This document shows, in pieces, positions 8,181 through 35,481 of a stretch of 36,683 bases of DNA (position 1 is its first letter; the number at the start of each line of letters is the position of its first letter). The notes under the pieces were generated by a model that saw nothing but the letters and a program-made list of their open reading frames with translations, was not told where the DNA came from and made no database searches. The stretch spans positions 1 to 36,683 of the forward strand of contig CAJOFU010000022.1 of assembly GCA_905233935.1 (NCBI GenBank), given 5' to 3'. The DNA comes from Paludibacteraceae bacterium. GTDB lineage: Bacteria > Bacteroidota > Bacteroidia > Bacteroidales > Paludibacteraceae. A program made the position numbers and the translations under genes.

Positions 8181-8264
8181 TGCGCAGGATGAGACTCGAA
8201 CTCACACGATCTTGCGACCACTACCCCCTCAAAGTAGCGTGTATACCAATTTCACCACCTGCGC
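8181..8264 (-). tRNA. tRNA-Leu (anticodon GAG)
   Basis: The acceptor arms GCGCAGG (8264-8258) and CCTGCGC (8188-8182) pair, with discriminator A at 8181. The D arm reads GGTGGTGAAATTGGTATACA and the T arm contains GTTCGAGTC. The anticodon stem CTACT/GGTAG encloses the loop TTGAGGG, giving GAG. The long variable arm is that of a class II tRNA. No CCA is encoded. Confidence 0.96.
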
Positions 8265-8266
8265 TC

Positions 8267-8284
8267 GCGTTCGGTATCGAACGC
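8267..8284. other. Hairpin between the two tRNA-Leu genes
   Basis: GCGTTCG, loop GTAT, CGAACGC is a perfect 7-bp stem filling most of the 26-bp spacer. It may guide processing of the tRNA precursor (inference). Confidence 0.6.
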
Positions 8285-8290
8285 TTGCTG

Positions 8291-8372
8291 TGCCCAGAAC
8301 AGGACTCGAACCTGCACGCCTCGCGACATACGCACCTGAAACGTACGCGTCTACCAATTCCGCCACCTGGGC
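8291..8372 (-). tRNA. tRNA-Leu (anticodon CAG)
   Basis: The acceptor arms GCCCAGG and TTCTGGGC pair with discriminator A at 8291. The D arm reads GGTGGCGGAATTGGTAGACG. The anticodon stem TACGT/GCGTA encloses TTCAGGT, giving CAG. A long variable arm and the T loop GTTCGAGTC are present. It is in one transcript with the neighbouring tRNAs; CCA is not encoded. Confidence 0.96.
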
Positions 8373-8380
8373 TCGCGTTC

Positions 8381-8525
8381 GGCAAATCGTGCTATCGTAT
8401 GTTGCTGCGCAACATATAGCGCACGATTGCCTCCGCTCTTCGAAAAACAACTTTGCAAGTTCTTTTTCGAGTGTTACAGAGAACACTTTCCTTTTAGAAA
8501 AATTAAGCAGAACAACTGTTCTGCT
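8381..8525. other. Three successive hairpins between tRNA-Leu(CAG) and tRNA-Gly
   Basis: (1) 8381-8431: AATCGTGC pairs with GCACGATT and TATGTTG with CAACATA around the loop CTGCG. (2) 8441-8469: CGAAAAA/TTTTTCG and AACTT/AAGTT with one C-C mismatch. (3) 8506-8525: AGCAGAAC, loop AACT, GTTCTGCT, perfect. No coding potential is seen. They lie within the tRNA precursor, so RNA folding or processing roles are plausible. Confidence 0.65.
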
Positions 8526-8539
8526 CATTTCTTTAGGAG

Positions 8540-8612
<73 letters not shown>

Positions 8613-11151: not shown

Positions 11152-11223
11152 TAGTCCATAGCAGAGTCGAACTGCTCTTTAGAGAATGAAAATCTCTCGT
11201 CCTAACCGATAGACGAATGGACC
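11152..11223 (-). tRNA. tRNA-Glu (anticodon UUC)
   Basis: The acceptor arms GGTCCAT (11223-11217) and ATGGACT pair with a terminal G-U, discriminator A at 11152. The D arm reads TCGTCTATCGGTTAGGACGA, the anticodon stem AGAGA/TCTCT encloses TTTTCAT, giving TTC, and the T loop is GTTCGACTC. CCA is not encoded. It is preceded by a long hairpin-rich leader and its promoter is at 11445-11476. Confidence 0.96.
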
Positions 11224-22920: not shown

Positions 22921-23970
22921 ATGGCAAAGATTCAAGAAAGAAACAAATTATACGCTTTTCTCCGCCCCTACGTGGACTGGATGTTTCGTCGTTCGTACCG
23001 TGAAATACATTACATAGGTCGCGAGAACATCCCTACGGATGGAGCTGTTATTTTTGCGCCAAATCATACAAACGCTTTGTGTGATGCGATGGCGATATTG
23101 GGCATTGACCGCAGGCAAAAGGTGTTTGTTGCCCGTGCGGATATCTTCCGTAACCCCAAGCAAGCCCGGCTGCTGCGGTGGTTGAAGATTATGCCCATGC
23201 GTCGTATGCGTGACGGTGCAAGCGAAGTGCTGCATAACGACGATACGGAGAACAAAGCAATCGATACCCTGCATGACGGCGTACCGTTCTGCATCCTGCC
23301 CGAGGGAAGACACCGACCTATGCACTCGCTCTTACCATTGGGCAAAGGAATCTTCCGTATAGCATTGCGTGCGAATGACGAATTCGGTAAAGAGAAACCT
23401 ATCTATATCGTTCCTGTCGGGCTGGAGTATGGTGATTACTACCACCTGTGGAACAGTCTGACCGTGAACATCGGTAAGCCGATCAATGTGACGGAGTTCG
23501 TCAAACAGTACACAGAGCAGCATACAAAAGACGGCGAAGAGGTTAACCGTCCGCAACTCATACTTGCCCTGCGCGAAGAGTTGACGCAGCGAATGCGTGA
23601 ACAGATTATGTGGGTGCCGGACGACGAACACTACGAAGAGAACTTCGCCAAACTGCAGGCTAATCCTCCCGCACCGTTCAACCGGTTCCCGCAACACAGG
23701 ATTCCCCACTGGCTGCTGTTTATCATCCTTGTACTGCTCTCGCCGCTATTCCTCGTCAGTGCAATTGTTACGATCCCGCTGTGGGCTATGTGGCTGCTCA
23801 TCCGCTGGAAAGTGAAAGATCCCGCTTTCCACAACTCTGTGCAGTATGTATGGCAGGTGCTGATCATGCCGCTGAACCTGTTCATTACGATGCCGTTCTG
23901 GATATTCTTACAAGAATACGTTTATCAGGTGCGGCAGTTGAGGAAGAGTGACAATCCTAACGTCGCGTAG
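22921..23970 (+). CDS. PlsC-type glycerolphosphate acyltransferase family protein
   Basis: Members transfer acyl groups to (lyso)phosphatidic-acid-like acceptors at the inner face of the cytoplasmic membrane. The 349-residue protein has the active-site block APNHTNALCDAM with His49 and Asp55 (one residue more between His and Asp than the usual HX4D, as I recall in Bacteroidota members), motif II-like FVARADIFRNPKQARLL, and motif III PEGRHRPMHSLLPLGKGIFR (near 123-143). Two or three membrane helices follow near the C-terminus (WLLFIILVLLSPLFLVSAIV, then WAMWLLI and the end). The true acceptor is unknown. The TAG stop lies in the loop region of a hairpin (23962-23974). Confidence 0.88.
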   Translation: MAKIQERNKLYAFLRPYVDWMFRRSYREIHYIGRENIPTDGAVIFAPNHTNALCDAMAILGIDRRQKVFVARADIFRNPKQARLLRWLKIMPMRRMRDGASEVLHNDDTENKAIDTLHDGVPFCILPEGRHRPMHSLLPLGKGIFRIALRANDEFGKEKPIYIVPVGLEYGDYYHLWNSLTVNIGKPINVTEFVKQYTEQHTKDGEEVNRPQLILALREELTQRMREQIMWVPDDEHYEENFAKLQANPPAPFNRFPQHRIPHWLLFIILVLLSPLFLVSAIVTIPLWAMWLLIRWKVKDPAFHNSVQYVWQVLIMPLNLFITMPFWIFLQEYVYQVRQLRKSDNPNVA

Positions 23971-24011
23971 CGACCATTTTAACTATTTAACGTTCGAAGA
24001 ACCATTTTAAC
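23962..24011 (+). repeat. Two hairpins with constant flanks (TTTAAC / CATTTTAAC) and different stems
   Basis: Unit 1 is GTCGC-GTA-GCGAC (23962-23974) followed by CATTTTAAC. Unit 2 is TATTTAAC, GTTC-GAA-GAAC (23992-24002), CATTTTAAC. Three more units of this design lie at 34326-34417. Stems start with GT and end with AC but are otherwise unrelated. Confidence 0.75.
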
Positions 24012-24017
24012 AATAGT

Positions 24018-25190
24018 ATGATACGTGTTTATCTGATTATCGCACTGTACGTGCTGGTGCCGATAGTGATTATCGAGTGCTTCAAACGCTGGACATGGAT
24101 GCAGAAGATCGGTACCGTGGTGGCAGCCTATGCAGTAGGTATCATCTTTGCCATGACGGGTTTTGTACATTTTGAGCCGGAGACTGCTGCTGCGCTGAGT
24201 TTCAGCAAACTGCAATCCACGATTATGTCGGTGACGGTACCCTTGGCAATCCCGCTTATGCTGTTCAACTGCGACTTCAAGCTTTGGACAAAAGCGCTGC
24301 CGAAAACGATCTGGTCGCTGGTAGGCGGAATATGCGCCGTGCTGGTGGCTGTGGTCAGCGGTTACTTTATCTTCCACACACCCGACGTGCCGGAGTTTAA
24401 CAAGGTGGCTGCAATGATGACCGGAATCTACACAGGTGGTACGATGAACTTCAACGCATTGGGTGCCTCGCTCGGTGTAGATAAGACGATCATGGCTATT
24501 GTGCTGGCGTTTGAGATGGTGCTGACCACACCATATATTTTCTTCATCATCGGTGGCGGCTACAAGGTGTTCCGCAAGATTCTTCCCTACGACGACGTAA
24601 CGCGCAAAGGGCGCACCGACGATAATGTAGAAACGAAAGATGTTGAGAACTACCGCGGGATGTTCGACCGCAAGAACGTCGGCGGGATGTTTGCCGGTCT
24701 GGGACTGAGTGTGCTCTTCCTTGCCATCGGCGCAGGGTTGGCGCTCTTGCTCACTGGTACGCTCAACGAACTGGTGGTAATCCTGACGATCACCACGCTT
24801 TCGATTATCGCATCGTTCTTCAAGAAAGTACGCGAGTTGCCCAAGACCTTTGAGTTGGGAATGTTCTTCATCCTGATCTTCTCCGTCATTGTCGCATCGC
24901 TGTTTGACATCCACAGCGTGAACGGCGGTTCGCTGATGATCGGTCTGTTCGTAGCTTGGGTGATGATTGTAGCTGCGGGACTGCACTTGCTGCTATGCCG
25001 GATCATGAAGGTCAGTGGCGACCTGTTCTGCGTCAGCCAGATAGCACTGCTCTGCTCGCCTCCGTTCGTGCCGCCGGTAGTAGGCGCAATGAAGAACAAG
25101 AAAGTGCTCATATCGGGTATCGTCATCGGTCTTGTAGGCTACGCCATCGGCACCTACCTTGGCGTAGCAATATCGTTCCTGTTGCCGTAA
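24018..25190 (+). CDS. DUF819 family membrane protein
   Basis: The 390-residue integral membrane protein has about ten or eleven hydrophobic helices. The motif GIYTGGTMNFNALGASLG (near 136-153), in which a Gly-Gly-Thr turn precedes NFNA, is the signature I associate with DUF819/YjcL-like proteins. The middle has a charged cytoplasmic loop (YDDVTRKGRTDDNVETKDVE). A second half with LCSPPFVPPVVGAMKNKK repeats the layout, in line with an inverted-repeat transporter fold. Members are thought to be transporters; the substrate is unknown. No promoter of the usual type is visible in the gap, so it may be read with the acyltransferase. Confidence 0.85.
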   Translation: MIRVYLIIALYVLVPIVIIECFKRWTWMQKIGTVVAAYAVGIIFAMTGFVHFEPETAAALSFSKLQSTIMSVTVPLAIPLMLFNCDFKLWTKALPKTIWSLVGGICAVLVAVVSGYFIFHTPDVPEFNKVAAMMTGIYTGGTMNFNALGASLGVDKTIMAIVLAFEMVLTTPYIFFIIGGGYKVFRKILPYDDVTRKGRTDDNVETKDVENYRGMFDRKNVGGMFAGLGLSVLFLAIGAGLALLLTGTLNELVVILTITTLSIIASFFKKVRELPKTFELGMFFILIFSVIVASLFDIHSVNGGSLMIGLFVAWVMIVAAGLHLLLCRIMKVSGDLFCVSQIALLCSPPFVPPVVGAMKNKKVLISGIVIGLVGYAIGTYLGVAISFLLP

Positions 25191-27665: not shown

Positions 27666-27742
27666 TGTAAACAATAGGAAACTTTTACTTGGCAGAACCC
27701 GAAAAGCCTTAACAGAGTAGGGGAATAATAAATCTATTATGT

Positions 27743-28657
27743 ATGAAAAAACTATTTATCGCAGTATCGTGTATGATGGGGTTGGCTCAGACGGCTCTCG
27801 CACAAACTGATTCCATCGCTGCTGAAGCTGTTCAGACTGCCGAGGAACAATCTACCAACTGGGGAGAATTGGCTATCTCTATCCTTATTCTCATAGTTGC
27901 GATAGGTATTATCGCGCACATGATCTATGAGTATTTCATCAAGAAACCTCATGCAGCAATCACCGTAGAGGATGGAGCAGCTGCACGCAAGAATCTCGGT
28001 CTCAAACCGATGAGCGATGACGAAGCGTCAGCACTTATTCAGAAGATGGACGACATCCTTGACGAGTGGACTCCTTACAAAGACGAGAACAACGAGGACA
28101 AATTCGTTATGACCAAGTTCGCCCAGACAAAGAAGACACTTGCTCTGCTTGACGAGGTAGCAGCCGCTCATCCCGACAGAGAAGATGTGGTTAACCGTTG
28201 CAACGAACTGAATGAGTGCTACAACGACGCCATGAAGCGTCAGTATAACGGTAGCACCAAGTACATCGTCCTCTGTGCGGTCATTGCCGCGCTCATGGCT
28301 TGGGGAGCAGGTGGCAATTGGGTAAGTGTTGTCGTATTCTTCGGATTACAGATCGCCATCTATTGGCTCGCAAGCATGACACCTACGTATCTGCTCAACA
28401 AGAAAGCTCTGAAAGGCGACGGCTGGAGACCGAAATTCATGTCAGGAATGATTGCCGGCATCCTTGGTATCGCTGCAACTGCACCGACCTATGTCACAAT
28501 CACCAAGTGGAGTGACGGCACCGAAACCAAAGAGACGGACGACAGCCCGTTCTGGATTTCGCTCATAATTACCATCATCCTCTTGGTTGTTCTGGCATAC
28601 TTCATGTTTGTTGTTGCGTTGCTTAACTATCTGCGCAACTACGTTCTGCACTTCTAA
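27743..28657 (+). CDS. Unknown membrane protein with signal peptide
   Basis: I do not recognise this family. The 304 residues begin with a signal peptide (MKKLFIAVSCMMGLAQTALA) and a membrane helix at about 43-66. A soluble, mainly helical and acidic segment follows (67-165, with SDDEASALIQKMDDILDEWT and KKTLALLDEVAAAHPDREDV). Four further hydrophobic segments lie at about 170-188, 192-215, 230-250 and 268-297. The soluble part would be cytoplasmic if the first helix is a normal N-out helix. A small AT hairpin (ATAATA/TATTAT) precedes the start. There is a 77-base gap after the BASS gene without an evident promoter. Confidence 0.75.
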   Translation: MKKLFIAVSCMMGLAQTALAQTDSIAAEAVQTAEEQSTNWGELAISILILIVAIGIIAHMIYEYFIKKPHAAITVEDGAAARKNLGLKPMSDDEASALIQKMDDILDEWTPYKDENNEDKFVMTKFAQTKKTLALLDEVAAAHPDREDVVNRCNELNECYNDAMKRQYNGSTKYIVLCAVIAALMAWGAGGNWVSVVVFFGLQIAIYWLASMTPTYLLNKKALKGDGWRPKFMSGMIAGILGIAATAPTYVTITKWSDGTETKETDDSPFWISLIITIILLVVLAYFMFVVALLNYLRNYVLHF

Positions 28658-28720: not shown

Positions 28721-29062
28721 ATGTACTACATCCAAAAGACACTGACCATCTCCGCAGCGCACAACCTCAATCTCAGTTACGAGAGCAAGTGCGAGCAACT
28801 GCACGGACATAACTGGGTCATCACCGTTTATTGCAAAGCCAAAGAGCTCAACAGCGACGGAATGGTGACGGACTTCACGCACATCAAGCGTGTGGTGAAG
28901 GACACCTTCGACCACAAGTACATCAACGACGTACTCGATGTCAATCCCTCGGCGGAGAACATTGCCCGCTGGATCTGTGACCACGTGGATAACTGCTACA
29001 AGGTCAGCGCGCAGGAGAGCGAAGGGAATATTGCCATCTATGAGCGCGATGAGTTGGAATAG
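28721..29062 (+). CDS. queD: 6-carboxy-tetrahydropterin synthase QueD
   Basis: QueD converts 7,8-dihydroneopterin triphosphate to 6-carboxy-5,6,7,8-tetrahydropterin, the second step to preQ0 and queuosine. The 113-residue protein has the zinc ligands His14 (AAHNL), His28 and His30 (LHGHNW). The catalytic residues are Cys24 (KCEQLHGH), His65 (FDHKYIND) and Glu108 (IYERDE). The length is normal for a short QueD. queE, the next enzyme of the pathway, follows after 162 bases, separated by two tandem arrays. queC and queF are not in the window. Confidence 0.96.
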   Translation: MYYIQKTLTISAAHNLNLSYESKCEQLHGHNWVITVYCKAKELNSDGMVTDFTHIKRVVKDTFDHKYINDVLDVNPSAENIARWICDHVDNCYKVSAQESEGNIAIYERDELE

Positions 29063-29141
29063 TTTGAAATAGTTTGAGGTGGTTTGAGGTAGTTTGAGGT
29101 GGTTTGAATTAGTTTGAGGTGGTTTGAATTAGTTTGAAATG
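29062..29141 (+). repeat. Eight tandem 10-bp units GTTTGANNTR after queD
   Basis: Units are GTTTGA followed by AATA, GGTG, GGTA, GGTG, ATTA, GGTG, ATTA and AATG, with an exact 10-bp period. The first base is the last base of the queD stop. The core is the reverse complement of TCAAAC in the next array. Confidence 0.95.
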
Positions 29142-29155
29142 GTTCAAACGCGCAG

Positions 29156-29215
29156 CATCAAACAACATCAAACAACATCAAACAACATCAAACAACATCA
29201 AACAACATCAAACAA
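29156..29215 (+). repeat. Six identical 10-bp units CATCAAACAA before queE
   Basis: Six exact copies end nine bases before the queE ATG. The TCAAAC cores can pair with the GTTTGA cores of the preceding array in the same 10-base phase. A perfect apex stem GTTTGAA-ATGG-TTCAAAC lies at 29132-29149. Confidence 0.95.
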
Positions 29216-29860: not shown

Positions 29861-31231
29861 TCACTTGTTGTACTCCGCAAACTTCCGTTGCGCCGAAAGG
29901 TAGGTGATGCGTGCATCGGTGTATGCGTTCTCGGCTTGCAGCAGCAACGCCTCGGATTCCATCAGCTCGGTCATCGTACCCACACCTGCCTCATAGTTCA
30001 TCAGCGATATGCGGTGATTATCCTGCGCCAACACGCAACTGGAGCGGTGTTGCTCCATCAGTTTGATCGATTCGATGAGCTGGTCGTAAATCTGGCGGTT
30101 CTGCAACGCCATCTTCTCACCCAGATCCTGTTGCATCAGTTCAGCCTGCTGTATCCGCAAGTCATGTTGCTTGAGCTTGTGTGCCGTTTCGCCCCAGCCG
30201 GTGAGAGGTACAGACACGCTCAAGAAGGCTATCGCATTCCATTTATCCCGGTTGAAGAAGTTACTGTAACCGCCTGTGATACCTACACCGACATGCGGTA
30301 ACGACTCGCCGAGCGTGAGGCGTCGGTTGAGTTGGTTGTACTTGATGTTCATATCGAGCAGCTGTATCTCCGGTCGCTGGCTGACACGTATCTCATCGGG
30401 TTGTTCTGCCAGAGCGGTTATCGCCTCTTCAGGCAGCGGCTCGAGCACCAGTTCGTGATCGTACGGTTGCCCAATGATATGACAAAGTAGCCGTGAGGCG
30501 AGTTGTATGCCATTCTCGAGTTGCAGCGACTTGGTCTGCATCTCATTCTGCTTGAGTTGGACACGGAGCAGGTCGTTGCTAGTCACCAGACCGTTGTTGT
30601 ATGCTACCTCGGCTACGCTCTGGATGGTGTCGAGCAGACTAACCACTTTCTCTACTGTCTGCCGCTTGGTCATCAGTCCTGCAATCAGCCAGTAGGTGTC
30701 AGCCACCTCTTGCAATATATCGCGTTCGCTGACCTCCTGTTTGAGGCGCGAGGCATCGATGCCGAGTTTGGCGAGTTTGTTCGCCGTAACGATCTGGCCG
30801 CCCCAAAATACGGGCTGGACAGCCTGCGCTTGGGCACTCACTCCCCAACGAACCAGTTTGATGTCCGTGTCAATGGAGTCACCCAAACCGGTGGTGATGG
30901 CGTTAACCACGTCCGACAAGAACGTACCTAATCCGCCGCCCATGGAGGTTTGCGATGCGTCAATATCTATAATGGGTTGGGCTGCTCCGAAAGCAAAACC
31001 TTGCAGCGATACCTGCGGGAAATACTTCCATAGCATCTGTTTCTTCAACTCTTGCGAAACAGCTACCTCCAATGCCGCAGAGCGGATCGTGCAGTTATGC
31101 TGACGTGCACTGCTCAGGCAGGAGTCGAGCGTCAGAACTTGCGCCTGTAGAGGCAGTATAACTATTGTGCAGAGAGCAAGGATTAACCATTGCTTTCGAC
31201 TTTCGACTTTCGACTTTCGACTATTTTTCAT
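29861..31231 (-). CDS. TolC-type outer-membrane efflux channel
   Basis: This is the outer-membrane channel of a tripartite RND pump. From the ATG at 31231 it has 456 residues, with a signal peptide (QWLILALCTIVILPLQAQ) after a hydrophilic lead MKNSRKSKVESRK that is encoded by tandem CGAAAGT words. The body shows the TolC-family pattern: LTLDSCLSSARQHN near the start, long helices such as EVADTYWLIAGLMTKRQTVE and a repeated second half (NRRLTLGESLPHVGVGITGG, VSVPLTGWGETAHKLKQHDL) ending in ALLLQAENAYTDARITYLSA. The ATG overlaps the end of the RND gene by 11 bases, so the two are coupled. A TTG further upstream is open but unlikely. Confidence 0.93.
   Translation of the reverse strand: MKNSRKSKVESRKQWLILALCTIVILPLQAQVLTLDSCLSSARQHNCTIRSAALEVAVSQELKKQMLWKYFPQVSLQGFAFGAAQPIIDIDASQTSMGGGLGTFLSDVVNAITTGLGDSIDTDIKLVRWGVSAQAQAVQPVFWGGQIVTANKLAKLGIDASRLKQEVSERDILQEVADTYWLIAGLMTKRQTVEKVVSLLDTIQSVAEVAYNNGLVTSNDLLRVQLKQNEMQTKSLQLENGIQLASRLLCHIIGQPYDHELVLEPLPEEAITALAEQPDEIRVSQRPEIQLLDMNIKYNQLNRRLTLGESLPHVGVGITGGYSNFFNRDKWNAIAFLSVSVPLTGWGETAHKLKQHDLRIQQAELMQQDLGEKMALQNRQIYDQLIESIKLMEQHRSSCVLAQDNHRISLMNYEAGVGTMTELMESEALLLQAENAYTDARITYLSAQRKFAEYNK
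31196..31220. repeat. Tandem word TTTCGAC at the RND/TolC boundary
   Basis: TTTCGACTTTCGACTTTCGA is part of four successive copies of a 7-base word. In the TolC-type protein it encodes SRKSKVESRK ahead of the signal peptide core. Confidence 0.75.
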
Positions 31232-34200
31232 ATTTGCGGGTAGATTTTTCAAACAGTTTCCAATAAGCCACCGGCAGTATCGTTACTACCATCGGCATCG
31301 TGATGATTGCTCCGAAGCAGATCACTACACCCATCGGCATCCACAGGTCGGTAGCCGCAAGGATCATCGGCACAACGCCAAGTGCAGTGGTGGCTGTGGT
31401 AAGGAAGATCGGACGCATCCTTCGCTGACCGGCGAGATAAGCCGCCTCGCGTGCTGTGATATGCTCGGTCGTTACGAGGAAGTCGGCGTACTCGTACATG
31501 ATAATCGCGTTACGCACGATGATACCGATCAGCGATATAACACCGAGGATAGCGGTGATCGAGAAGTCTTGGTCAAACATCCATAGTCCGAATGCCGCAC
31601 CGAACAAACACAGCAGACTCGAGCTCAACGACAGGAACGCGATATTCAGCTTCTTGAAGTGATATACGAGCAGCACGAGCAGCACGAGCAGTGCAGCCAG
31701 CACGGACATCACTAATCCCGGCACGGTTTCCATCGTATGCTCCATCGCTCCGCCGTAGGTGATACGCACACCTTCCGGCAGGTTCTTCTCCAACTCGCGT
31801 ATATAGCGGATCACCGGTTTCATCGCACCGATAGCGGCAATCTTTCCGCGCGTATCAGCCGCCACGGTGATCGTGCGGATACTGTTACGGCGCTTGATCT
31901 GTGCGTGGTGGAAGTCCGGCTCAATCTCCGCCACTTGACGAAGTGGAACCCACAGACCCGGTATCAATGTGGGGATCATCGTATTACCTATATCCGAATA
32001 GTTGAGCGAGTCTGCCCCCTCCGTATAGAGCACCACAGGCACCTTGTAGCCGTCTTGCCAGATAGCCGTCATCCTTCGTCCGCGCAGTACACCGTTCAGG
32101 TATAACGATAGCGAGGCTTGGGTTACACCCAGACGGCTGGCTTCGTCGTCTTTCAGACGCAGGCGGATGGTCTGCACGGACTCATCGTAGTTAGTGTGCA
32201 CCCACGTGAGTTCGGGAAGCGAAGACATGAAGGTTTTTATGGAGTCTGCCATGCCGAAATCAGAGCCTTGCACGTTAATCTCAATAGCGTTCGGCACCGA
32301 CTGATAATCCAACCGCTTGAATCGGCAGAATGCATTCGGGAACGCATCCTCGTACAGCGGCTGGTACTCCTCAACAAGTTCTACGGTGGCATCGGATGAT
32401 ACCGTGTTCACGATGAACTGTGCATAGTTCTCACCACCGATCTGCGGAGCGTAGGTGGCGTGGAAGCGCGGGCTGGATGAGCCCACAAAGGCCGTTACAC
32501 TTTCTACACGTTTGTCAGCAGTGAACACCTTGCCCAGGCTATCCACAACAGCCTGTGTCTGATCCAGTGACGCACCTTCCGTCAAGTGAATCTCTACGGC
32601 AAAACTGTCACGGTTAGCCTTCGGCATCAGCTGGATGTTCAGGTTGATGACTATAAATCCGCCTACTATCACCGAAGCCAACCCGACAACGATGGTTGCC
32701 CACGGGTGGCGGAAGCATAGGTCGAGCAGTTTCTGGTAGCCGTTCTGCAAGGCGGCAAAGAACTTGTTCTGTACGCGCTCGATCACGGTCGGCTTGGCAC
32801 CCGCCGGCTTCGGACGAATGAAGCTTGCCGCCATGTACGGGATAATCCATACGGCATACAATATACTGCACGACAGGGCGATGAAGATTGCCCACGGGAA
32901 TAGTTTGATGAAGTCCGCCAGCGTGCCGGTCATCAGTCCGAGCATCGGGAAGAACATGCCCGAGATTGATGTCGTGGCTATCAGCATCGGCACGAACAGA
33001 TCACGTGTCGATACCGCCGCCGAGTACCAGCGTGAATGACCTTTCTCCAGCAGTTCGCTGTAGCCGTCGATCACAATCACCGAGTCATCCACCACCATGC
33101 CTAACACCACAATCAACGCCGCCAGCGTCACCGTATTCAGTTCGATACCGGCAAGGTACATGATGCCTAACGTAATGGCGATACATATAGGCAGACCCGT
33201 CGAACTGACCAGAGCGGTACGAATAGGAAAGAGCACCAGCATCACGGCGATCACTATCAGCACCGAGATTACCAGATCCTTCAAGAACGACTTGACGCTC
33301 TCATCTACCACGCGGGGCTGGTCGGTCACCTTGTGAAGCTTCACATCCGGCGGCAGAGTGGCTATCATCTCTTGCAGTGCCTCATCCACCTTTTCGCCGA
33401 AGGCGACGATGTTGTTGTCAGGCTGCATCGTGATGTTCAGCATCACGCAGCGCCCCTTACCCTTCTCGTCGTAACGCTCGATGTATTGCTTCGGCTCCTC
33501 AAACCGGCGCTCTATCGTTGCTATATCCTTCAGCCGGATAGTCTGGTTCGTGAGCGGGTCGGACAGAATGATCTGCTCGCCTACCTCATACTCCGTCTGA
33601 TACGGCACATCCACATGGATCAGTGCTGCGCCGGCATCGTTGGCAATCTCGCCGGTCATCGTGCGGAAGCCTTGCGTAGCAAGGCGGGCGAGGATGATGT
33701 TCTGGTCGATGCCGTATTTGGATATACGCTCTACATCCAGCGTCACGGCTATCTCCTCATGCTGCATGCCCAGCAGTTTGATACTGCCCATCTCACCTAT
33801 CTCACGCAACCGGTCAGCCACCATCTTGGCATAATCCTCCATCTCGTGCGGCGAACGCTCATCGCTCTCCAGCGCCAGCAGGATACTGCTCGTGTTGCCG
33901 AAATCGTCAATCACCACTACCGCCAACAGTCCCGTAGGCAGTTGCACCTGCTTCATGATACTCATCCCGCCGCGGATCTTCGACCACGCTTCGTTGGCGT
34001 TCATCACCTTCGGCGTCAGGGCGGCAAACACATAGCACATGCCGTCCTTACTCAGGCTGTACGTCTTGCGTTTGTCTATCTCGGGGAAAGTAAACAGATA
34101 CTGCTCAATAGGTTTAGCCACCTGTTCTTCCACCTCTTGCGCCGTGGCTCCCGGATAGACTCCCACAACCAAACCCAGACGGATGGTCACCTGCGGGAAC

Positions 34201-34316
34201 TCATCCTTGTTCATCTTGCCCAAGGCAAAGATGCCAAACACCACCAGCACCGCTACCACCGCATAGATGATACGGCTGCTCCGCATGGCGGATTCTATAT
34301 GATTTCGTTCTCTCAT
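31221..34316 (-). CDS. RND-family efflux permease
   Basis: This inner-membrane proton-driven pump is the engine of the tripartite efflux system. The 1031 residues are a full RND length. The N-terminal helix (RIIYAVVAVLVVFGIFALG) is followed by DEFPQVTI. The proton-relay pair Asp410-Asp411 lies in VVLGMVVDDSVIVIDGYSE. The second half has the matching bundle (LISLIGIIVRNAIIMYEYAD and RRMRPIFLTTATTALGVVPM). The many differences from AcrB and the absence of metal-binding Met clusters give no clear substrate. The gene overlaps the TolC-type gene and is 100 bases downstream of the MFP gene, a gap filled with three hairpins. Confidence 0.95.
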   Translation of the reverse strand: MRERNHIESAMRSSRIIYAVVAVLVVFGIFALGKMNKDEFPQVTIRLGLVVGVYPGATAQEVEEQVAKPIEQYLFTFPEIDKRKTYSLSKDGMCYVFAALTPKVMNANEAWSKIRGGMSIMKQVQLPTGLLAVVVIDDFGNTSSILLALESDERSPHEMEDYAKMVADRLREIGEMGSIKLLGMQHEEIAVTLDVERISKYGIDQNIILARLATQGFRTMTGEIANDAGAALIHVDVPYQTEYEVGEQIILSDPLTNQTIRLKDIATIERRFEEPKQYIERYDEKGKGRCVMLNITMQPDNNIVAFGEKVDEALQEMIATLPPDVKLHKVTDQPRVVDESVKSFLKDLVISVLIVIAVMLVLFPIRTALVSSTGLPICIAITLGIMYLAGIELNTVTLAALIVVLGMVVDDSVIVIDGYSELLEKGHSRWYSAAVSTRDLFVPMLIATTSISGMFFPMLGLMTGTLADFIKLFPWAIFIALSCSILYAVWIIPYMAASFIRPKPAGAKPTVIERVQNKFFAALQNGYQKLLDLCFRHPWATIVVGLASVIVGGFIVINLNIQLMPKANRDSFAVEIHLTEGASLDQTQAVVDSLGKVFTADKRVESVTAFVGSSSPRFHATYAPQIGGENYAQFIVNTVSSDATVELVEEYQPLYEDAFPNAFCRFKRLDYQSVPNAIEINVQGSDFGMADSIKTFMSSLPELTWVHTNYDESVQTIRLRLKDDEASRLGVTQASLSLYLNGVLRGRRMTAIWQDGYKVPVVLYTEGADSLNYSDIGNTMIPTLIPGLWVPLRQVAEIEPDFHHAQIKRRNSIRTITVAADTRGKIAAIGAMKPVIRYIRELEKNLPEGVRITYGGAMEHTMETVPGLVMSVLAALLVLLVLLVYHFKKLNIAFLSLSSSLLCLFGAAFGLWMFDQDFSITAILGVISLIGIIVRNAIIMYEYADFLVTTEHITAREAAYLAGQRRMRPIFLTTATTALGVVPMILAATDLWMPMGVVICFGAIITMPMVVTILPVAYWKLFEKSTRKYEK

Positions 34317-34325
34317 AATATCTAC

Positions 34326-34417
34326 TTAACGTTTTCTCGGCAGAGAAAACCATTTTAACCGTTTAACGTTTTTCGCAGAAAAACCTCATTAACGTTCACG
34401 TAGTGAACCATATTAAC
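34326..34417 (+). repeat. Three hairpins with constant flanks (TTAAC / CATTTTAAC) and different stems
   Basis: Unit 1: TTAAC, GTTTTCTC-GGCA-GAGAAAAC (34331-34350), CATTTTAAC. Unit 2: CGTTTAAC, GTTTTTC-GCA-GAAAAAC (34368-34384), CTCATTAAC. Unit 3: GTTCAC-GTA-GTGAAC (34394-34408), CATATTAAC. They are read here on the plus strand, opposite to the flanking genes, and match the two units at 23962-24011. Confidence 0.8.
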
Positions 34418-35445
34418 TACTTATCGAAGATTACCGTCGCCCCCTTGTACATCTTCTGGTAGCCTTTGCTGATAACCGTATCGCCCAAGTGGATGCCCTC
34501 GGTGATGAGTACACCGTTCTCGACGAAGGCCTCGATCTTTACCATCTGACGCTCAGCATGTCCCTCACGCAGCACCCAAACGCTGTGTCCGCGTTGCTGC
34601 GTCTGAATACATCCCGCACTGATGATGAATCCGTTATGCTCACGCTCGGTAACAATAGCGCGGCACACCATGCCGGGCAACAGATCCTGTGCGGCTTTAG
34701 GCGATGTGATCTCCGCTTTGACGCGATACGTATGTGCCAAGTGAGTGGAACTCAGCGCCTTTTCGGAGATCTTCGCGTCATATTGACTGCCCAGTGAGGG
34801 CATACTTACCGTTATCGGCTGACCGACTTTCAGTGCGCCGATCTCGCTCTCGGGTACGGTAAACTCCACGCTGTATGCCGACAGATCCATCAGTTTGCCT
34901 ATCGGTTGAGCTACGGCGACCTGCTGACCGATATTCACGTCGTTCATGGTCACTATGCCATCTTGCGTAGCACATATCGAGCAATCCTCAAAGCGCCTGC
35001 GCGATGAGATCAACAGGGAGTGAGCTTTCTCCAGATTCGTTTCCATCTCAATCCATTTGACATCACTGATGCCGCCCTTCTCATGAAGAGGTTTGAGTCG
35101 CTTGTATCCGTCTTGTGCCTGAGCGTACATCGCTTCGGCAGTCTCTAACAATGCTTTGGCTTGTGTGCTGTCCACCGAGGCTATGAGTTGACCGGCTTTC
35201 ACGCGGTCACCGCTCTTGACATATACACCCGTGATCTGACCTCCCCACGGGAACACCAGCGAGATGTCCGTCAATGGACTGATCACGCCTACGTAGGTGT
35301 CTTCCACCATGCGGCTGCTCTCGCCAACTACCTCAATCTCAACGGGCAGAGGTTTGTCGGTCAGATAACTGTACTTGGATTGTTTCTTGCAGGCTGACAT
35401 GACTACCATGCATGCCATCAGCATCAAAAAGATAGATCGTTTCAT
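34417..35445 (-). CDS. RND efflux membrane-fusion lipoprotein (periplasmic adaptor)
   Basis: The adaptor joins the RND pump to the TolC-type channel. From the ATG at 35445 it has 342 residues with a lipoprotein signal peptide MKRSIFLMLMACMVVMSAC (Cys19 lipidated). The lipoyl-like half-motifs GGQITGVYVKSGDRVKAGQL (about 68-87) and CATQDGIVTMNDVNIGQQVA (about 157-176) flank a helical hairpin (ALLETAEAMYAQAQDGYKRL to AHSLLISSRRRF). Beta-barrel and membrane-proximal parts follow. An upstream GTG at 35457 is open but gives no better start. It is the first gene of the operon MFP-RND-TolC. Confidence 0.94.
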   Translation of the reverse strand: MKRSIFLMLMACMVVMSACKKQSKYSYLTDKPLPVEIEVVGESSRMVEDTYVGVISPLTDISLVFPWGGQITGVYVKSGDRVKAGQLIASVDSTQAKALLETAEAMYAQAQDGYKRLKPLHEKGGISDVKWIEMETNLEKAHSLLISSRRRFEDCSICATQDGIVTMNDVNIGQQVAVAQPIGKLMDLSAYSVEFTVPESEIGALKVGQPITVSMPSLGSQYDAKISEKALSSTHLAHTYRVKAEITSPKAAQDLLPGMVCRAIVTEREHNGFIISAGCIQTQQRGHSVWVLREGHAERQMVKIEAFVENGVLITEGIHLGDTVISKGYQKMYKGATVIFDK

Positions 35446-35481
35446 TATATCGAACACTAATTATATTTACAAAATCGCCTG

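What the first reader, a model, noticed from the sequence alone, without database searches (positions are those of the whole stretch)
23962..24011. Hairpins with constant flanks but unrelated stems (locus A)
Two units read TTTAAC-[stem-loop]-CATTTTAAC, with stems GTCGC/GCGAC and GTTC/GAAC. Together with three units at 34326-34417 there are five stems of 4-8 bp in non-homologous gene boundaries. The stems differ completely apart from a 5' GT and 3' AC, while the flanks are kept. Ordinary sequence drift would break the stems, so pairing itself seems selected or produced by a copying mechanism that generates new palindromes. Unit 1 even includes the stop codon of the acyltransferase gene.
Basis: partly seen in the sequence, partly recalled or inferred. 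Interest (0 to 1): 0.72.

Follow-up and report, generated by a model that had tools for sequence, protein, structure and literature searches.

The report
Hairpin arms of S23 gene elements
Short hairpins that fill gaps between genes in this rumen bacterium match the inverted end-pieces that flank a small gene of unknown function (S23) in related species; they are likely gene-less leftovers of that element, and between species their stems are altered or replaced whole while the ability to pair is kept.

Summary
The five units are real, and the own genome has 28 exact constant-flank matches against 0 for the backward pattern. The family is confined to one genus: 48 of 120 genomes, against 2 of 180 of other genera with one hit each. 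Stems are diverse (47) yet paired and of similar stability: long stems are A/T-rich, short ones G/C-rich. Between sister genomes stems hardly change while loops do. At greater distance linkers stay and the stem is altered pair by pair or replaced whole. The key step lay outside the window: the same units flank an S23 gene (PF05635) as inverted arms in eight genomes. At nqrE-nqrF this insert is present or absent, with a 12-19 nt gap when empty. Its homology ends at the arms when it sits elsewhere, and S23 proteins with these arms form one tight group. Gene-less pairs of arms always have the same order (22 of 22). I read the window's units as gene-less remnants of an IVS-like element living in operon gaps. 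How it moves, and whether the arms act in RNA or single-stranded DNA, is inferred.

The parts
23958..23983 (+). Unit 1: TAAC-GTCGC-GTA-GCGAC-CATTTTAAC; holds the stop codon of the acyltransferase gene (23968-23970)
23986..24011 (+). Unit 2: TTTAAC-GTTC-GAA-GAAC-CATTTTAAC
34326..34359 (+). Unit 3: TTAAC-GTTTTCTC-GGCA-GAGAAAAC-CATTTTAAC
34362..34393 (+). Unit 4: TTTAAC-GTTTTTC-GCA-GAAAAAC-CTCATTAAC
34388..34417 (+). Unit 5: ATTAAC-GTTCAC-GTA-GTGAAC-CATATTAAC (shares its 5' flank with unit 4)
22921..23970 (+). Acyltransferase gene (PF01553) upstream of locus A
24018..25190 (+). DUF819 gene (PF05684) downstream of locus A
31221..34316 (-). RND efflux gene (PF00873); locus B lies between it and the next gene
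34417..35457 (-). Membrane-fusion gene (HlyD type) whose stop codon touches locus B
   Evidence: for the stop codon
29062..29215 (+). Related repeat pair of another arm type in the queD-queE gap: (GTTTGA...)n arm, TTCAAAC-GCGCAGC-ATCAAAC hairpin, then the (CATCAAACAA)n inverted arm; similar repeats lie on both sides of an S23 gene of the own genome (L398)

Best explanation
The hairpin units match the inverted terminal arms that flank an S23-type gene (PF05635) inserted between operon genes of related species, and the gene-less copies in this window are likely remnants of such elements. Shown: in eight genomes the S23 gene lies between a reverse-oriented array upstream and a forward-oriented array downstream. 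The whole block is present or absent at one junction, and the block keeps its identity between two different junctions while the neighbours do not. Gene-less pairs of arms have the same fixed order. Inferred: solo arrays such as loci A and B are single arms left behind or spread without the gene. The arms would fold as rows of small hairpins, and the two arms of one element would pair with each other in the transcript, so that the insert is tolerated or cut out as IVS elements are from 23S rRNA. S23 protein would act in trans on the arms it is found with. The hairpin head needs only to pair with the right stability, so it drifts by paired changes and is exchanged whole between copies that share the linkers.
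For: Eight S23 loci have TTAAC-hairpin arms, minus upstream and plus downstream in 8 of 8: L288, L394-L397, L406, L407 and L419; L407 has one extra plus unit on its upstream side. Empty and filled site: of the 30 best-scoring nqrF loci (73 genomes had a match) 26 have a 12-19 nt gap, 2 have [minus arm]-S23-[plus arm] and 2 another insert; two further genomes seen outside these 30 (L394, L395) have the same S23 insert. S23 block in nqrE-nqrF of G041 against nqrD-nqrE of G063: homology runs from arm to arm and stops at the flanks, S23 DNA 90.6% against 82.9% for asnS2 of the same genomes. Seven TTAAC-armed S23 proteins (three at the same junction) are 63-98% alike, and at most 52% like the others of 46 compared. 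Inverted flanks in 32 of 51 S23 entries (two loci entered twice; some chosen for nearness to units), in 17 of the 30 chosen by score alone, against 13 of 221 control genes. Mixed gene-less arrays are minus-then-plus in 22 of 22. 27 of 102 co-directional gaps of the own genome share at least three 11-mers with S23 arms of other genomes (50 shuffles: mean 4.5, max 9); 7 of the 27 are TTAAC arrays themselves. Pairing is kept.
Against: No TTAAC-armed S23 gene was found in the window's own genome; one of its two S23 matches was inspected (other arms), and the assembly is 77% complete. By eye the inner border of gene-less pairs resembles the S23 leader on one side only. S23 has no known function (PMC4990558), and no target-site duplication was noticed. 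Against G001 the TTAAC-armed S23 genes are not closer than asnS2 (78.6 and 81.0% against 82.3 and 83.0%), so only the G041-G063 pair suggests a recent move. Arm-to-arm pairing energy is only moderately above control in the genus (16 of 47 beyond the 5% level, reversed control 3) and weak in the phylum sample (7 of 29, reversed control 4). G015 and G044 have 21 and 19 exact units, but the S23 loci that I looked at (four of six matches in G015, three of six in G044) have other arms. Some S23 flanks share direct rather than inverted repeats (10 of 46).
Confidence: 0.66

Rival explanations
1. The hairpins are intercistronic RNA elements kept at each junction to set mRNA processing, stability or translation of the flanking genes; the link with S23 is historical.
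For: 144 of 154 arrays lie between co-directional genes (own-genome background 147 of 186) and 2 between divergent genes. Strong conservation at matching sites: stem 2 of 254, linker 4 of 450, third codon positions 917 of 4791. Stabilities are evener than for shuffled stems, more so with RNA than with DNA parameters.
Against: Arrays run in both directions relative to transcription (76 against 46 unmixed). GNA loops follow the unit strand, not the mRNA (47 of 66 and 59 of 78). Mismatches show no bias to wobble pairs in the mRNA strand (8 against 7, counted by hand). Most other species lack an array at the same junction.
Confidence: 0.45
2. A REP-like family of non-autonomous repeats moved by an unknown transposase that acts on single-stranded hairpins; S23 genes are passengers caught between two copies.
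For: GNA and GNNA loops on a defined strand are the kind that gives unusually stable DNA hairpins (passages of PMC4686876). Units are solo, tandem or in inverted pairs, as REPs can be (PMC3733652).
Against: The Y1 transposase family of RAYTs gave no match in G000 and G001 and by eye does not follow copy number. S23 protein groups follow arm types, which passengers need not do. S23 genes elsewhere in Bacteroidota also tend to have inverted flanks, of other sequences (12 of 29 of the best-scoring loci).
Confidence: 0.2
3. Neutral repeats: octamer slippage makes TTTAAC arrays and template switching keeps imperfect palindromes perfect, with no function.
For: Many gaps hold other 7-10 nt tandem repeats. 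Template-switch correction of quasi-palindromes is known in general (recalled).
Against: Matching arrays are far more conserved than third codon positions. Length and G+C of stems compensate. Block insertion with S23 at nqr.
Confidence: 0.1
4. nut-like antitermination sites: TTTAAC as boxA and the hairpin as boxB.
For: CTCTTTAAC recalls boxA, and a hairpin of free stem sequence recalls boxB (resemblance recalled, not tested).
Against: Such sites act in the sense strand only (recalled), but 76 of 122 unmixed co-directional arrays are antisense.
Confidence: 0.03

Closest known systems
Intervening sequences (IVS) of bacterial 23S rRNA with an S23 ORF (Coxiella, Leptospira; PMC4990558, abstract and introduction read)
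   Same: Short element with an S23 (PF05635) gene bordered by sequences that can pair
   Different: Lies between protein genes of operons, not in rRNA; arms are tandem arrays of variable-stem hairpins; gene-less copies are common; removal by RNase III not shown here
REP / BIME repeats and RAYTs (PMC3733652, outline and passages; PMC2817692, search listing only)
   Same: Extragenic palindromes of 20-40 bp, solo, tandem or inverted, between unidirectional genes, associated with a gene
   Different: Flanks, not stem, are constant; no GTAG or CGTC tag; Y1 transposase does not follow copy number; the associated gene is S23
TAACTGA heptamer arrays of Beggiatoaceae, Cyanobacteria and some Bacteroidetes (PMC4679880, outline, section 10 and passages)
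   Same: Short direct repeats, many just upstream of start codons, differing between related genomes; two sets reported in Paludibacter propionicigenes
   Different: No constant-flank hairpins or S23 gene reported in the parts read
Avd / S23 family of diversity-generating retroelements (PMC10053308, passages)
   Same: PF05635 resembles Avd, which is essential to retrohoming
   Different: Reverse transcriptases and variable repeats were not looked for here

Membership tests
23S rRNA intervening sequence (IVS) | Inserted in a 23S (or 16S) rRNA gene | tested here: not met
   The window copies and the S23 loci viewed lie between protein-coding frames
23S rRNA intervening sequence (IVS) | Carries an S23 ORF | tested here: met
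   Met by the armed copies; not by the gene-less window copies
23S rRNA intervening sequence (IVS) | Bordered by complementary sequences | tested here: met
   8 of 8 TTAAC-armed loci; 32 of 51 S23 entries against 13 of 221 controls; weaker by pairing energy
23S rRNA intervening sequence (IVS) | Excised from the transcript by RNase III | not testable with these tools
   Needs RNA work
REP / BIME | Extragenic palindromes of 20-40 bp in many copies | tested here: met
REP / BIME | Unpaired GTAG or CGTC tag at one end and stem kept within a family | tested here: not met
   Constant flanks are TTAAC and CATTTTAAC; 47 stems
REP / BIME | RAYT (Y1 transposase, PF01797) associated | tested here: not met
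   29 of 101 genus genomes have a match, but not G000 or G001 (both incomplete); no link with copy number by eye
Integron attC | Inverted R boxes around a variable hairpin | tested here: not met
   The flanks TTAAC and TTTTAAC are direct, not inverted, repeats; integrase not searched
Rfam families | Match to a curated RNA family | tested here: not met
   No match at the five units up to E=1 (window); in nine further loci only a tRNA reaches its gathering score

The most novel reading that the evidence does not exclude
S23 genes across Bacteroidota mark an unrecognised class of small mobile element that replaces the gap between operon genes, carries its own inverted arms of exchangeable, equally stable hairpins, and leaves the short tandem repeats that fill many gene gaps. 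Each S23 protein recognises its own arm type, and a PD-(D/E)XK gene can take the place of S23.
Probability: 0.45. Interest if true: 0.9.

Novelty: new variant of a known kind. Interest (0 to 1): 0.8.

Why it matters
S23 proteins are known from rRNA intervening sequences and have no known function (PMC4990558, introduction); in Bacteroidota they are common and often multi-copy (157 of 198 genomes of the phylum sample). An arm type that goes with an S23 group, an empty site, and gene-less copies give a handle on what the protein may act on. It would also explain part of the short repeats between genes, and it offers a natural set of hairpins kept for stability rather than sequence.

Tried and rejected
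RAYT/REP: no Y1 transposase match in G000 and G001, and by eye no link with copy number. Rfam: no match at the units. mRNA-strand wobble test: no bias. boxA/boxB idea: orientation against it. Gene content of the units: a reading frame from the ATG in the reverse orientation is in frame for some stem lengths only (worked out by hand, no call). Replication-strand idea: unit orientation within contigs, read by eye from the lists, was mostly the same at short range but mixed beyond some tens of kb; left untested. Four-way-junction fold of gene-less pairs: the outer helix is in the predicted fold of 26 of 34 overlapping pairs, but the side hairpins often give way to arm-to-arm pairing. Locus A in 27 other species with a readable upstream region: no TTAAC unit by eye, often other short repeats. 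Literature searches for an S23-repeat link (listings, some capped): nothing found in that library.

Full report
1. Observation. The five hairpins are at the stated places: stems GTCGC, GTTC, GTTTTCTC, GTTTTTC and GTTCAC, each followed by its exact complement after 3-4 bases. Unit 1 is preceded by CCTAAC rather than TTTAAC, and units 4 and 5 have CTCATTAAC and CATATTAAC. Locus A fills the 47 nt between an acyltransferase gene and a DUF819 gene and reaches into the end of the first; locus B lies in the 100 nt between a membrane-fusion gene and an RND gene. The own genome (2.23 Mb in 92 contigs, 77% complete) has 28 exact matches to TTAACGTN{3,25}ACCATTTTAAC, the backward pattern none, and 46 to the shorter TTAACGTN{3,25}ACCAT, of which 41 form perfect or near-perfect stems by eye (backward control 7). 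In a 341,609-base sample perfect stems of 5 bp or more after TTAAC are 16 against 2.2 in shuffles.

2. Distribution. 42 of 101 genomes of the genus; 48 of 120 same-genus and 2 of 180 other-genus genomes (one hit each) in a family sample. Of 197 distinct contexts 166 have a perfect stem of 4 bp or more. Of the 31 others, 11 are in records titled as other organisms (Flavobacterium, Secundilactobacillus and so on; titles after L138 were not shown) and act as a built-in control; some are overlapping matches or imperfect units of the genus.

3. Anatomy. Units are linked by octamers NNTTTAAC. Among 235 contexts there are 47 stems and 142 hairpins; 125 of 164 triloops are GNA. Longer stems are A/T-rich and shorter ones G/C-rich (Spearman -0.62 over 47 stems). 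The spread of folding energy is smaller than in each of 500 shuffles, with RNA (2.02 against 3.25) and DNA parameters (1.50 against 1.92). The 47 stems share ancestry, so the p-value (3e-6) is optimistic; 4-bp stems are weaker than the rest.

4. Evolution. In seven arrays shared by G000 and its sister G001, stems differ at 2 of 254 positions, loops at 6 of 65, linkers at 4 of 450; first and second codon positions at 422 of 9596, third at 917 of 4791, other intergenic at 382 of 2461. Gap by gap over ten pairs, array gaps differ little except where a unit was swapped (L021) or a composite is missing (L015); one (L199) was too short to judge; other gaps vary widely, some being as conserved as arrays. 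At larger distance, 42 matching unit pairs, some from the same junction in several species, give 20 identical hairpins, 5 with loop changes only, 3 with paired changes, 1 with a one-sided change and 13 with a hairpin of another length; 35 junction pairs differ in unit number or order. The clearest case keeps 13 of 13 and 16 of 17 flanking bases while GTTTTTAT-GCA-ATAAAAAC stands in place of GTCGC-GTA-GCGAC (L040, L087). Part of those flank letters are fixed by the search pattern.

5. Gene context. Of 154 arrays that could be placed, 144 lie between co-directional genes, 7 between convergent, 2 between divergent genes and 1 in a gene; of 186 background gaps of the own genome 147, 20 and 19 (simple codon-usage gene caller; arrays near a locus end or without two called neighbours were dropped, their number not printed). 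Unmixed arrays run antisense (76) or sense (46). Mixed arrays are always minus then plus (22 of 22).

6. The S23 link. In G001 an S23 gene (PF05635, E 1.2e-27) sits between a minus and a plus array. PF05635 is in 79 of 101 genomes of the genus and 157 of 198 of the phylum sample, often in several copies. Eight TTAAC-armed S23 loci were seen, all minus-S23-plus, one of them (L407) with an extra plus unit before the gene. Of the 30 best-scoring nqrF loci (73 of 101 genomes had a match, G000 and G001 none), 26 have an nqrE-nqrF gap of 12-19 nt, 25 of these with GGAGG; two have the armed S23 insert, as have two more seen otherwise (L394, L395), all four without GGAGG just before nqrF; the remaining two of the 30 have a PD-(D/E)XK gene (PF13366). 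The G041 block in nqrE-nqrF and the G063 block in nqrD-nqrE are alike from arm to arm and unrelated outside; the linkers of the left arm agree while its hairpins differ. Their S23 genes are 90.6% alike in DNA against 82.9% for asnS2; but for G041 and G063 against G001 the S23 genes (78.6, 81.0%) are no closer than asnS2 (82.3, 83.0%). The seven TTAAC-armed S23 proteins compared are 63-98% alike and at most 52% like the others; over 46 S23 loci protein and arm similarity go together (rho 0.36, 0 of 300 permutations; some pairs are the same site in two species).

7. Wider picture. S23 flanks of other sequence are often inverted repeats too: 18 of 46 genus and 12 of 29 phylum loci at p 0.05 or less (direct repeats 10 and 4), control genes 11 of 224; by shared 8-mers 32 of 51 genus entries, 17 of the 30 chosen by score alone (two of these, L388 and L393, with a doubtful gene call), 11 of 29 in the phylum, control genes 13 of 221. 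By pairing energy the phylum signal is weak. One other arm family, AGACC-[stem]-TNA, also has constant flanks and variable stems: 36 units, 11 stems of 2-6 bp, 11 loci. S23 runs with both neighbours in 42 of 43 genus entries and 21 of 22 phylum loci where both could be called. Of 102 co-directional gaps of the own genome 27 share at least three 11-mers with S23 arms of other genomes (shuffled mean 4.5, max 9; other gaps 1 of 18; coding 7 of 646 pieces); seven of the 27 are TTAAC arrays and a few look like chance. The window holds a second such repeat pair of another arm type at 29062-29215.

8. Reading. Shown: constant-flank, variable-stem hairpins form the arms of S23 elements that are present or absent as blocks; pairing is kept while stem sequence is not. 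Inferred: window copies are gene-less remnants; arms pair in the transcript or fold as single-stranded DNA; S23 recognises its arms; heads are exchanged through shared linkers. The GNA loops lie on the unit strand whatever the direction of transcription, which leans to DNA; the evener RNA energies and the operon position lean to RNA. The data do not settle this.

9. Known kinds. Closest are IVS elements of 23S rRNA (same gene, complementary borders, different place) and REP/RAYT systems (similar logic, different gene and conserved part). I therefore file it as a new variant. No report of the S23-repeat link was found (listings, some capped); preprints and most subscription papers are not held.

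Noticed in passing
window 29062-29215: (GTTTGA...)n and (CATCAAACAA)n inverted arms with a GCGCAGC hairpin between queD (PTPS) and queE (radical SAM); similar repeats lie on both sides of an S23 gene of the own genome (L398).
   Followed up: partly
window 27689-27723: DUF805b RNA motif (RF02914, 42.1 bits against a gathering score of 35.6) upstream of the gene at 27743-28657.
   Followed up: no
L415 2153-2668 (-) and L417 687-1130 (-): In the nqrE-nqrF gap of two genomes a PD-(D/E)XK gene (PF13366) stands where others have S23; in L415 its flanks look like inverted repeats of another sequence (by eye).
   Followed up: partly
L185:608, L185:3618, L186:14591, L189:10255, L193:10611, L194:13980 (0-based starts of gaps): A second hairpin family in gene gaps, about ATCNGCCA-NNNN-TGGCNGAT, with paired changes in the stem (by eye).
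   Followed up: no
L226-L255, L304-L363 (gaps upstream of DUF819, asnS2 and tkt genes): The same gene gap holds different 7-10 nt tandem repeats in different species of the genus; several resemble S23 arms.
   Followed up: partly
L085, near 2166-2276, 5016 and 7066: Three gene-less composites within about 5 kb share the left hairpin stem and the spacer, but their right-hand stems differ.
   Followed up: no
L004/L280: A tandem repeat of about 37 nt next to an array has two more copies in G001 than in G000.
   Followed up: no
window 8181-8612 and 11152-11223: Four tRNA genes on the minus strand (Rfam).
   Followed up: no
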